64,000 nucleotides of DNA. Origin: Cryobacterium sp. M96. Its GTDB lineage: Bacteria > Actinomycetota > Actinomycetes > Actinomycetales > Microbacteriaceae. The notes under the pieces were generated by a model. That model did no database searches, was not told the origin of the DNA, and saw only the letters and a program-made list of their open reading frames with translations. The stretch lies in assembly GCF_002929845.1 (NCBI RefSeq), contig NZ_PJJS01000049.1, positions 1-64,000 on the forward strand. Reading direction: 5' to 3'. The translations under genes were made by a program, and so were the position numbers. Positions 6,422 to 49,335 of the stretch are shown here, piece by piece; position 1 is the stretch's first letter; each line of letters starts with the position of its first letter.

Positions 6422-6504
6422 ACGAATTCGACGGAGATTTTGCTCGATCCAGGCTGGAACAGATATTTCGGTCCGGTTCTGACCAAAATCTCCGTCGAAT
6501 TCGT
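6422..6504. repeat. Dispersed 85-bp palindrome, copy 1
   Basis: The left arm ACGAATTCGACGGAGATTTT is mirrored by a perfect inverted copy ending at 6504. The two 21-base arms enclose about 41 bases of weakly paired sequence. It lies between sucD and the perM-like gene, downstream of the sucD hairpin. It is one of six family members in this window. Confidence 0.93.
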
Positions 6505-6538
6505 TCGGGCCCCGGGCACGGCAGAGGCAGGGCGGCAG

Positions 6539-6600
6539 AGGCACGGCAGGCGGCAGGCACAGGCACGGCAGGCGGCAGGCAGAGGCACGGCAGGCAGGCT
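6539..6600. repeat. 22-bp tandem repeat
   Basis: Two full units and one partial unit of AGGCACGGCAGGCGGCAGGC plus two bases. It lies between palindrome copy 1 and the sucD terminator and is non-coding. Confidence 0.85.
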
Positions 6601-6622
6601 CGCCGGCCGCGGCCGACAACGC

Positions 6623-6654
6623 GACAGGGCCCGCCTGGTGAGGCGGGCCCTGTC
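6623..6654 (-). terminator. Terminator hairpin after sucD
   Basis: A perfect 13-bp stem (GACAGGGCCCGCC and its complement) with a 6-base loop, 27 bp after the sucD stop. There is no clear U tract, as is common in actinobacteria. Confidence 0.75.
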
Positions 6655-6680
6655 GTTCGGTGCTTGTGCAGCGATGCCGG

Positions 6681-7568
6681 TTACAGCGCCGCGAGAACCT
6701 CACGCAGCAGGGTGGCGGTCGCGCTCGGCGTCTTGCCGACCTTGACCCCGGCGGCCTCGAGGGCCTCCTTCTTGCCCTGGGCGGTTCCGGCCCCGTTGGA
6801 GACGATGGCGCCGGCGTGGCCCATGGTCTTGCCCTCGGGGGCGGTGAAGCCGGCTACGTAGCCGACAACGGGCTTGGTGACGTGGGCCTTGATGTACTCT
6901 GCCGCCTTCTCCTCGGCGTCGCCGCCGATCTCTCCGATCATGACGATGGCGAGCGTCTCGGGGTCAGCCTCGAACGCCTCGAGCGCGTCGATGTGCGTTG
7001 TGCCGATGATGGGATCGCCGCCGATGCCGATGGCGGTGGAGAAGCCTAGGTCGCGCAGTTCGTACATCATCTGGTAGGTCAGGGTGCCCGACTTGGAGAC
7101 GAGGCCGACCGGGCCCTTGCCGGTGATGTTCGCCGGCGTGATGCCCACGAGCGCCTCACCGGGGGTGATGATGCCGGGGCAGTTCGGACCGATGATGCGG
7201 GTCTTGTTGCCCTTGGCGTTGTTGTAGGCCCAGAACTCGGCCGAGTCCTGCACGGGCACACCCTCGGTGATGATGACGAGCAGCGGGATGCCGGCGTCGA
7301 TGGCTTCGATGACGGCGTCCTTGGTGAAGGCCGGCGGCACGAACGCGATGGAGACATCCGCGCCCGTCTTTTCGATCGCCTCGGCAACCGTGCCGAACAC
7401 GGGCAGCTCAACGCTGCCGTGCACGACGGTGGTGCCGGCCTTGCGAGCATTCACGCCGCCGACGACCTGGGTGCCGGCCCTCAGCATGAGGGCGGTGTGC
7501 TTGGTGCCCTCACCGCCGGTGATGCCCTGCACGATGACCTTGGAGTCCTTGTTGAGGAAGATTGACAT
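6681..7568 (-). CDS. sucD: Succinyl-CoA synthetase alpha subunit
   Basis: A 295-residue TCA-cycle enzyme that interconverts succinyl-CoA and succinate with nucleotide phosphorylation. The CoA-binding N terminus has the loop QGITGGEGT, followed by GPNCPG at 127-132. The phosphorylated histidine is His251 in TMGHAGA. The start at 7568 (MSIFLNKD) follows sucC by 13 bp; the open frame upstream of it is shadow sequence over sucC. It forms a dimer or tetramer with SucC. Confidence 0.97.
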   Translation of the reverse strand: MSIFLNKDSKVIVQGITGGEGTKHTALMLRAGTQVVGGVNARKAGTTVVHGSVELPVFGTVAEAIEKTGADVSIAFVPPAFTKDAVIEAIDAGIPLLVIITEGVPVQDSAEFWAYNNAKGNKTRIIGPNCPGIITPGEALVGITPANITGKGPVGLVSKSGTLTYQMMYELRDLGFSTAIGIGGDPIIGTTHIDALEAFEADPETLAIVMIGEIGGDAEEKAAEYIKAHVTKPVVGYVAGFTAPEGKTMGHAGAIVSNGAGTAQGKKEALEAAGVKVGKTPSATATLLREVLAAL

Positions 7569-48147: not shown

Positions 48148-48180
48148 GACTGCGATATTAGTCCGAGTAAGCTCGGTGAA

Positions 48181-49137
48181 ATGTCCGATCCGGTTGCGAG
48201 TCCCTGGAACAACGGCCACAGCACTCCTTTCGTCGAACTGGACCGGGCTGACTGGGCCGCCCTCGCGCCAACCACCCGGCTTCCGCTGCGGGAGACGGAG
48301 ATCGTGCAGTTGCGGGGGCTGGGTGAGCCGCTCGACCTCAGTGAGGTGACGGATGTCTACCTGCCGCTCAGCCGCCTGCTCAACCTCTACGCCGCCGGTG
48401 CACGGCAGCTGCACCGCGCCACGAGCGACTTCCTCGGGGAGCGCGCCCAGCGCACGCCGTTCGTGATCGGGGTCGCCGGATCGGTCGCGGTGGGCAAGTC
48501 CACCATCGGCCGCTTGCTGAGGGAGCTGCTGGCCCGCTGGGAGGACACCCCGCGGGTCGAGTTGGTGACCACCGACGGTTTCCTGCTGCCCAACGCCGAA
48601 CTCACCCGCCGGGGCCTGATGGACCGAAAAGGGTTCCCCGAGTCCTACGACCGGCGGGCCCTGCTACGCTTCGTGGCCGCGGTCAAGAGCGGTGCCGCCG
48701 AAGTGCGGTCGCCGTTCTACTCACACCTCAGCTATGACATCGTGCCCGACGCCCAGATCGTGGTGCGGCAGCCGGACATCCTGATCGTCGAGGGTCTCAA
48801 CGTGCTGCAGCCGCCCGGACCGGGCCACGGCCTCGCCGTCAGCGACCTCTTCGACTTCACCGTATACGTGGACGCCCGCACGCAGGACATCGCTCGCTGG
48901 TACGAGGAGCGCTTTCTCAAGCTGCAGCGCGGCGCATTCAGTAATCCGAAGTCGTACTTCCACCGGTACGCGAGTATGACCGAGGCCGAGGCGCGGAGCC
49001 GGGCCCGGGAAATCTGGACCGAGATCAACGAACCGAACCTGCTGCGCAACATCCGTCCGACCCGCTCTCGGGCGACCCTCGTGCTGCGCAAGGATCCGAA
49101 CCACTCCGTCTCCAAGGTGCTGCTGCGCAAGGTGTGA
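48181..49137 (+). CDS. coaA: Pantothenate kinase type I
   Basis: A 318-residue CoaA, the first step of CoA synthesis. Walker A is GVAGSVAVGKST, followed by TTDGFLLPN, KGFPESYDRRALL and HLSYDIVPD. The end RATLVLRKDPNHSVSKVLLRKV is typical. It is divergent from glmS with a very short gap, so their promoters must overlap the coding starts. A 17-bp triplication and palindrome copy 6 follow. Confidence 0.96.
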   Translation: MSDPVASPWNNGHSTPFVELDRADWAALAPTTRLPLRETEIVQLRGLGEPLDLSEVTDVYLPLSRLLNLYAAGARQLHRATSDFLGERAQRTPFVIGVAGSVAVGKSTIGRLLRELLARWEDTPRVELVTTDGFLLPNAELTRRGLMDRKGFPESYDRRALLRFVAAVKSGAAEVRSPFYSHLSYDIVPDAQIVVRQPDILIVEGLNVLQPPGPGHGLAVSDLFDFTVYVDARTQDIARWYEERFLKLQRGAFSNPKSYFHRYASMTEAEARSRAREIWTEINEPNLLRNIRPTRSRATLVLRKDPNHSVSKVLLRKV

Positions 49138-49186
49138 CCCGCCGTTTGTCACCGCACAGTGCGCTCCGCCGGGTGTCACCGCACAG

Positions 49187-49237
49187 GCACCCTCGACGTG
49201 CGGGCACCCTCGACGTGCGGGCACCCTCGACGTCCGG
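49187..49237. repeat. 17-bp tandem triplication after coaA
   Basis: Three units of GCACCCTCGACGTGCGG, the third with one change, 50 bp after the coaA stop and just before palindrome copy 6. Confidence 0.9.
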
Positions 49238-49250
49238 GCACTCCGGCCGT

Positions 49251-49335
49251 GAACCAATTCGACGGAGATTTTGACGAAAAGCCGGTTTCTGTGGCTGTTT
49301 CGGAACGATTCGGCCACAATCTCCGTCGAATTCGT
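49251..49335. repeat. Dispersed 85-bp palindrome, copy 6
   Basis: The left arm GAACCAATTCGACGGAGATT is mirrored by a right arm ending GAATTCGTC. It lies between the convergent genes coaA and glmM. Confidence 0.92.

What the first reader, a model, noticed from the sequence alone, without database searches (positions are those of the whole stretch)
6422..49335. Six-copy family of 85-bp palindromes at gene ends
Copies at 6422-6504, 10280-10365, 24749-24831, 25030-25114, 44138-44224 and 49251-49335 share a 20-base arm (GAAC[G/C]AATTCGACGGAGAT) on both sides and differ in a weakly self-pairing centre. All are intergenic or touch a 3' gene end. Six in 64 kb implies hundreds per genome if the density holds. 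No transposase or integrase is in the window. It could be a non-autonomous mobile palindrome (REPIN/MITE-like), a transcript-end structure or a protein-binding site. The G/C difference in the arms is mixed between left and right arms, which suggests exchange between arms or copies.
Basis: seen in the sequence. Interest (0 to 1): 0.78.

Follow-up and report, generated by a model that had tools for sequence, protein, structure and literature searches.

The report
Bent-DNA palindrome repeats of Cryobacterium
A Cryobacterium genome carries about 120 copies of an 85-base mobile palindrome whose two matching ends hardly change while its middle keeps little but its length and a 10-base rhythm of A/T and G/C, as if the DNA must bend around a protein rather than fold as RNA.

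Summary
All six copies are where stated; the genome holds 118 of exactly 77 bp (AATT to AATT), against 0 for the backward-read control. In the genomes searched the family occurs only in Cryobacterium (0 of 388 other family members sampled) and is patchy there: 21 of 57 genomes, 2 to 119 copies. Copy number jumps between sister species, and 8 of 10 copies read in one genome face sites without it in close relatives, so it has been mobile. Between orthologues the arms differ at 1.8% and the centre at 29% of sites. The centre keeps its length and a 10-bp alternation of A/T and G/C, shows no element-specific pairing, and replaces W by W more often than neutral change would. This fits DNA bent or looped between two protein-bound arms (inferred), not an RNA hairpin. 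It resembles REPINs, but no RAYT was found in 57 genomes and the spacer lacks specific pairing. The protein is unknown. A second palindrome family (B), with length classes about 11 bp apart, accompanies it.

The parts
6422..6504 (.). Family A copy E1 (AATT-AATT 6425-6501)
   Evidence: element at the syntenic place in 9 of 19 relatives read
10280..10365 (.). Family A copy E2 (10285-10361)
   Evidence: syntenic copy in 3 of 14 relatives read: G066, G012, G064
24749..24831 (.). Family A copy E3 (24752-24828), left member of an A-B-A composite
   Evidence: one copy in this spacer in 2 of 8 relatives read: G064, G025
24903..25006 (.). Family B palindrome (104 bp, arms GGCTAACGCAGGA / TCCTGAGTTGGCC) between E3 and E4
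   Evidence: B arm GGCYAACTCAGGA occurs 35 times forward and 43 reverse in G000
25030..25114 (.). Family A copy E4 (25034-25110), right member of the A-B-A composite
   Evidence: centre 32/42 identical to E3
44138..44224 (.). Family A copy E5 (44143-44219)
   Evidence: syntenic copy in 2 of 10 relatives read: G012, G025
49251..49335 (.). Family A copy E6 (49256-49332)
   Evidence: syntenic copy in 1 of 11 relatives read: G064

Best explanation
The copies belong to one dispersed family of small non-autonomous mobile DNA elements. Each consists of two inverted, sequence-specific arms (about 23 bp, C[GT]AAC[GC]AATTCGACGGAGATTTTG) held at a fixed distance (arm start to arm start 63 bp, about six helical turns) by a spacer whose bases are nearly free except that A/T and G/C alternate every 10 bp. 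Shown: the copies, the fixed length, the conserved arms, the phased spacer, common ancestry with polarity, and past mobility. Inferred: a protein (recombinase/transposase-like or architectural) binds both arms on the same helical face, and the phased spacer lets the 63 bp between them bend into a tight loop or wrap. Copies that keep this geometry stay competent, either to move or as a nucleoprotein site for the host; arm conservation in orthologous copies suggests the second also counts. The protein is not identified.
For: Length: 122 of 129 distinct elements are exactly 77 bp; the 84-bp outlier looks like an IS scar. Phasing: over 121 elements AT peaks (70-88%) at 23-25, 33-35, 43-45, 53-55 and GC peaks between them; autocorrelation +0.28 at 10 bp, +0.30 at 21, -0.27 at 5 in 94 centres, against -0.06 to +0.02 in 201 flank pieces. 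Selection on W: with one element per locus group (94), orientation-free W positions show 53 W-to-W against 80 W-to-S changes (40%; neutral 8-15%, p<1e-12). The third least like the consensus still has AT 0.71 at W against 0.19 at S positions. E1 orthologues, mostly at saturated divergence, keep the contrast. Arms: 1.8% difference against 29% in the centre over 44 orthologous pairs from 15 loci; 13/352 (3.7%) at arm positions not used to find the copies. Predicted curvature 36.8 against 21.0 degrees for shuffled centres. Ancestry and polarity. Mobility: sister-species jumps and sites without the element in relatives.
Against: No binding protein or mobilising gene was found. No target duplication was seen. 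The raw difference per site is not lower at W positions (0.316) than at S positions (0.220), and pooled over the whole centre the class-preserving share is lower than in the flanks (183:342 against 3168:4141). In the curvature model a 5-bp insertion did not lower the bend angle (46.4 degrees), and its parameters are recalled. Part of the phasing is inherited from a common ancestor. Family B shows no such phasing. E1 'orthologues' could be re-insertions at one preferred place.
Confidence: 0.6

Rival explanations
1. A host site first: the elements are binding/wrapping sites for a nucleoid or topology protein (gyrase-like wrapping, or a lineage-specific architectural protein), spread as a mobile repeat but kept for chromosome organisation or supercoil release at gene ends.
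For: Orthologous copies keep arms and length. Copies are enriched between convergent genes: 48 of 115 classed against 90 of 435 spacers in the same loci (orthologues not removed). E. coli gyrase sites show periodic GC (10.75 bp) read as wrapping, and gyrase cleavage sites are overrepresented in a subset of BIME-2 (PMC6379681, passages).
Against: Copy number differs 5- to 7-fold between sister species, so no essential role. The period is 10.0 rather than 10.75 bp, and the gyrase motif described has no fixed inverted arms.
Confidence: 0.25
2. RNA hairpins or bidirectional transcription terminators / mRNA 3' ends.
For: The arms would form a stem of about 18 bp; copies favour convergent gene ends; folds are a little more stable than with shuffled centres (-36.8 against -34.1).
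Against: Chimeric halves from different copies fold as well as real ones (-36.9, p=0.95); complementarity between centre halves is below shuffles (0.348 against 0.377); the polarity mark is a mismatch in 81 of 133 copies; no terminator-like site in window 24500-25400, the only stretch scanned; no Rfam match at gathering threshold in the window.
Confidence: 0.07
3. True REPINs moved by a RAYT (Y1) transposase.
For: Same anatomy: two invariant inverted ends at a fixed distance with a variable spacer (63 bp here, 71 bp in P. fluorescens GI REPINs; PMC3116915, passages).
Against: PF01797 in 0 of 57 genomes while it rings in 5 of 14 control genomes; no compensatory pairing in the spacer.
Confidence: 0.03
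4. An ordinary MITE of a DDE insertion sequence whose parent carries the same ends; the phased spacer is only the leftover of a common ancestor.
For: One oriented consensus underlies the copies; a subfamily with a shared arm variant in G065; sites without the element in relatives.
Against: No target duplication; no larger element with these ends among the 100 of 255 arms listed; W kept by W-to-W changes beyond neutral expectation; length fixed while the centre is scrambled.
Confidence: 0.2

Closest known systems
REPINs (REP doublets) of Pseudomonas and others (PMC3116915, passages)
   Same: About 100 dispersed copies, two invariant inverted ends at a fixed distance, variable spacer of constant length
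   Different: No RAYT gene in 57 genomes; spacer keeps helical W/S phasing instead of hairpin pairing; 63 against 71 bp
MITEs (miniature inverted-repeat elements)
   Same: Short, non-autonomous, inverted ends, copies facing sites without them in relatives
   Different: No target duplication and no parent IS with these ends found; centre scrambled with length fixed
Gyrase binding motif / BIME-2 (PMC6379681, passages)
   Same: Periodic GC content, read there as DNA wrapping
   Different: Here sequence-specific inverted arms, 10.0-bp period, 85 bp; the gyrase motif is 130 bp, degenerate, 10.75 bp
REPs as IS targets (PMC1525189, abstract)
   Same: Insertion sequences land inside the palindromes (here ISL3 family)
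   Different: The same IS also sits at other AT-rich places, in genomes with and without the family, so it need not recognise the palindrome

Membership tests
REPIN | two highly conserved inverted ends at a fixed distance | tested here: met
REPIN | spacer pairs into a hairpin with compensatory changes | tested here: not met
REPIN | RAYT (Y1_Tnp) gene in the genome | tested here: not met
   PF01797 in 0 of 57 genomes
REP (GTAG/CGTC tagged) | each unit is itself a 20-40 bp palindrome with an unpaired tag at one end | tested here: not met
   the single arm is not self-complementary (sequence); definition from the abstract of PMC3733652; tag not examined further
MITE | terminal inverted repeats, short, many copies | tested here: met
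MITE | presence/absence polymorphism between close relatives | tested here: met
   8 of 10 G065 sites show no recognisable arm in the relatives read; 2 of 10 show remnants
MITE | target-site duplication | tested here: inconclusive
   best excess 0.37 against 0.32 over 161 copies; none seen at the G065 sites, but spacers are diverged
MITE | parent transposon with the same ends | tested here: inconclusive
   none among the 100 of 255 arms listed; five small contigs withheld
integron attC site | RYYYAAC...GTTRRRY ends, structure rather than sequence conserved (recalled) | tested here: not met
   commonest base at -5 is G (187 of 322 arms) and arms are conserved in sequence; integrase gene not searched
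intrinsic terminator | GC hairpin followed by a U run | tested here: not met
   0 found in window 24500-25400 (E3/E4 region only)
gyrase wrapping site | gyrase binding/cleavage at the site | not testable with these tools
   only the periodicity can be compared

The most novel reading that the evidence does not exclude
A class of bacterial mobile repeat in which the requirement on the spacer is not hairpin pairing but DNA mechanics: two specific arms must meet across a 63-bp loop, so selection writes a nucleosome-like 10-bp A/T-G/C code into otherwise nearly free sequence. In old copies the same geometry has been taken over by the host as a nucleoprotein site. Family B, with length classes about 11 bp apart, would be a second solution of the same problem.
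Probability: 0.35. Interest if true: 0.82.

Novelty: new variant of a known kind. Interest (0 to 1): 0.62.

Why it matters
Short palindromic repeats are usually explained through RNA or single-strand hairpins. Here is a family with over 100 copies in some genomes, sister species rich and poor in it, and a centre so diverged that the remaining constraints can be read off: arms, length and helical phase. That makes 'DNA bending as the selected trait of a mobile repeat' testable with a few spacer mutants and a pull-down.

Tried and rejected
RAYT partner: searched, none. Gene lying between two copies in three loci (L042, L075, L118) as a partner: in L042 it reads as an ordinary acetyltransferase-like gene beside a purA-like gene and a transporter-like gene (my reading of the translation, no family search) and was dropped. 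Relaxed arms in the 36 genomes without the family: 5 genomes with one hit each at the maximum of 3 mismatches, which do not look like the family. Centre hairpin covariation: none. Target duplication: none clear. Class-preserving changes pooled over the whole centre against mostly coding flanks went the other way (183:342 against 3168:4141), probably because C/G exchanges dominate the flanks; the orientation-free test at W positions replaced it. Compensating indel pairs in E1/E2 orthologues: suggestive alignments, but the gain from gaps does not exceed that of random pairs (mean 9.8 against 9.7). Autonomous copy at contig ends: the ends read proved to be ISL3 copies inserted into arms. Curvature model: arm-to-arm twist too scattered to use. 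Family B phasing: none. Rows dropped: elements not exactly 77 bp in the profile counts; of 93 orthologous pairs of 77 bp the 49 with centre identity under 24/42 are not (those I saw were mostly E1; part of the output was cut from view).

Full report
What is there. The six copies are real and at the stated places. The exact 15-base arm AATTCGACGGAGATT stands on both sides of each, and AATT to AATT measures 77 bp in all six. In the own genome the 14-base arm occurs 133 times forward and 122 times reverse, and the pattern read backwards 0 times. With both arms and the exact distance required (up to 3 mismatches in 30 bases) there are 118 elements. In the first 100 of the 255 arms, those listed, I counted by hand 40 pairs; 36 are spaced exactly 63 bp from 14-mer start to 14-mer start, the others 62, 64, 64 and 72.

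Distribution. Among 57 genomes of the own genus 21 have the family (2 to 119 copies) and 36 have none; a search with relaxed arms in those 36 gave one hit at the 3-mismatch limit in each of 5 genomes, none like the family. In 398 genomes sampled from the bacterial family, 4 have it, all among the 10 of the own genus; 0 of 388 others. Rfam gives no match at gathering threshold in the window.

Anatomy. From the window and fetched loci I collected 129 distinct elements: 122 are 77 bp, five 78, one 79, one 84. Over 121 aligned copies the arms are nearly invariant. The 41-bp centre has no base above about 75%, but A/T content swings between 70-88% and 6-27% with a period of 10.0 bp (94 copies). Within single copies the W/S autocorrelation is +0.28 at 10 bp, -0.27 at 5 bp and +0.30 at 21 bp; 201 flanking pieces show none, and random pieces of the loci show only the 3-bp codon signal.

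Polarity and ancestry. The base outside AATT is G or C in nearly all copies. Copies with one arm of each kind are 81 of 133 (expected 63.6, p=0.0025). Orienting these by arm type raises the information of the centre from 17.46 +- 0.14 to 20.51 bits. Mean pairwise identity of the oriented centres is 41.5% (136 copies, orthologues included).

Constraint. In 44 orthologous pairs from 15 loci (of 93 pairs; those with centre identity under 24/42 left out) the centre differs at 29.1% (525 of 1804), the arms at 1.8% (24 of 1320) and the mostly coding flanks at 11.3% of sites. Because copies were found through the arms, I also counted arm positions not used for finding: 13 of 352 (3.7%). E1 has an element at the syntenic place in 9 of 19 relatives read, all 77 bp; most pairs of these centres are as different as unrelated copies, yet A/T content is 0.50-0.75 at W positions and 0-0.18 at S positions in the relatives; in the window copy it is 0.67 and 0.41. 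Independent re-insertion at the same place is not excluded for E1. With one copy per locus group (94), at the four W positions that do not depend on orientation, changes go W-to-W 53 times and W-to-S 80 times; neutral expectation for the local composition is 8-15% W-to-W (p<1e-12). The third of copies least like the consensus keeps the contrast (0.71 against 0.19). Against this, the raw difference per site is not lower at W than at S positions (0.316 and 0.220), and spectra pooled over the centre show a smaller class-preserving share than the flanks.

Not a hairpin code. Complementarity between the two halves of the centre is lower than after shuffling partners (0.348 against 0.377 +- 0.010). 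Replacing the right half by that of another copy leaves the fold energy unchanged (-36.94 against -36.81, p=0.95). A curvature model gives 36.8 degrees against 21.0 for shuffled centres, but 46.4 with 5 bp added in the middle (parameters recalled), so it supports bending and says nothing for the distance.

Mobility. On a tree of one conserved region (21 genomes) copy number differs strongly between neighbours: 19 and 3 (G005, G033) and 82 and 16 (G064, G008) in well supported pairs, 26 and 4 (G032, G076) in a pair with support 91/96, and 118 and 19 (G000, G066) in an unresolved group (counts). In G065 many copies share a one-sided arm variant and a similar centre. Of 14 G065 sites looked up in three close relatives, 10 were read base by base in 20 stretches: at 8 no arm is recognisable in the relatives read (one to three each); at 2 (L194, L201) remnants show loss or decay. 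Of the four not read (L189, L192, L195, L200), L192 has element-sized spacing in all three relatives, and the spacer of L200 holds an element in G061 and at least one exact arm in G033; L201 has element-sized spacing in G005. At L188, L193 and L203 the element sits in the spacer behind a stop codon (read by eye; L188 and L193 also). No target duplication is visible, but spacers are too diverged to fix breakpoints. Over 161 copies the best direct-repeat excess is 0.37 against 0.32.

Surroundings. With a simple coding-score gene caller of my own, 48 of 115 classed copies lie between convergent, 54 between tandem and 13 between divergent genes, against 90, 234 and 111 of all spacers of at least 60 bp in the same loci; 19 copies overlapped a called gene (four of the window's six among them, perhaps through over-long calls) and 9 lay at an edge. 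Of 200 arms towards which a coding frame runs and stops nearby, 12 have the stop exactly at the TAA/TGA of the element's edge.

Insertion sequences in the arms. Contigs of the own genome end where an IS enters an arm: ten junctions with the GAGCC end, one with another end, and one more on C50; further matches of the IS end in this genome were not read. The flanks GAGATTTT/AAAATCTC suggest an 8-bp duplication, not seen on both sides of one copy. The transposase of the G012 copy is ISL3 family (PF01610, E 4e-66). Elsewhere the IS sits in other, often AT-rich places, in genomes without the palindromes and also in G012 and one of two G025 sites read, so the arms are probably just AT-rich landing pads. 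The 84-bp copy (L024) looks like a scar.

Partner. Y1_Tnp/RAYT was found in none of 57 genomes. No other partner could be tested. Literature searches for repeats of Cryobacterium or of this design (listings only, the Cryobacterium genome paper PMC7381226 not read) showed no title or abstract opening that describes them. Papers used: PMC3116915 and PMC6379681 (passages), PMC1525189 and PMC3733652 (abstract and outline).

Family B. Between E3 and E4 lies a palindrome of another family, arms GGCYAACTCAGGAGAT. It lacks the 10-bp phasing, but 61 arm pairs that I counted by hand in the listing (G061, G062, G064, G065) have spacings 68 (1), 78-80 (43), 89-91 (16) and 102 (1), none in between; 46 sequences give 81, 91-93, 102-104 and 115 bp. 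Steps of about 11 bp could be helical turns or subfamilies with indels. In the 36 genomes without family A the B arm occurs 0 to 2 times, except G019 (4 forward, 4 reverse). A-B-A composites occur in the window, L027 and L080.

Conclusion. A mobile palindrome family found so far only in one genus, REPIN-like in anatomy, without a RAYT and with helical phasing in place of hairpin pairing. That two arms are bridged by a protein over a bent 63-bp loop is inference.

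Noticed in passing
window 24903-25006; L027, L080, L174, L181, L204-L223: Second palindrome family B (arms GGCYAACTCAGGAGAT) with length classes 81, 91-93, 102-104, 115 bp; nearly absent where family A is absent (exception G019); forms A-B-A composites.
   Followed up: partly
L001, L005, L008, L011, L173, L174, L178, L179, L180, L183, L243: ISL3-family insertion sequences sit in the AT-rich part of palindrome arms and break the assembly there.
   Followed up: partly
L184-L203 (G065): Subfamily with a one-sided arm variant GGAGTTTTT and a similar centre in many copies; useful for studying recent activity.
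   Followed up: partly
element edges, e.g. L188, L193, L190: The CTAAC/CTGAC edge can coincide with the stop codon of the neighbouring gene; relatives without the element also end in CCCTGA or CCCTAA there.
   Followed up: partly
centres of families A and B, many loci: The word ACGGATG / CATCCGT recurs inside centres and spacers (seen by eye, not counted); it may be a general word of these genomes.
   Followed up: no
window 10836-10905, 41068-41138, 49186-49251: Short tandem repeats with 17-18 bp units; the last directly precedes copy E6.
   Followed up: no
G000 contigs C1-C5: Five smallest contigs are withheld (N), so a small multi-copy parent element there cannot be excluded.
   Followed up: no
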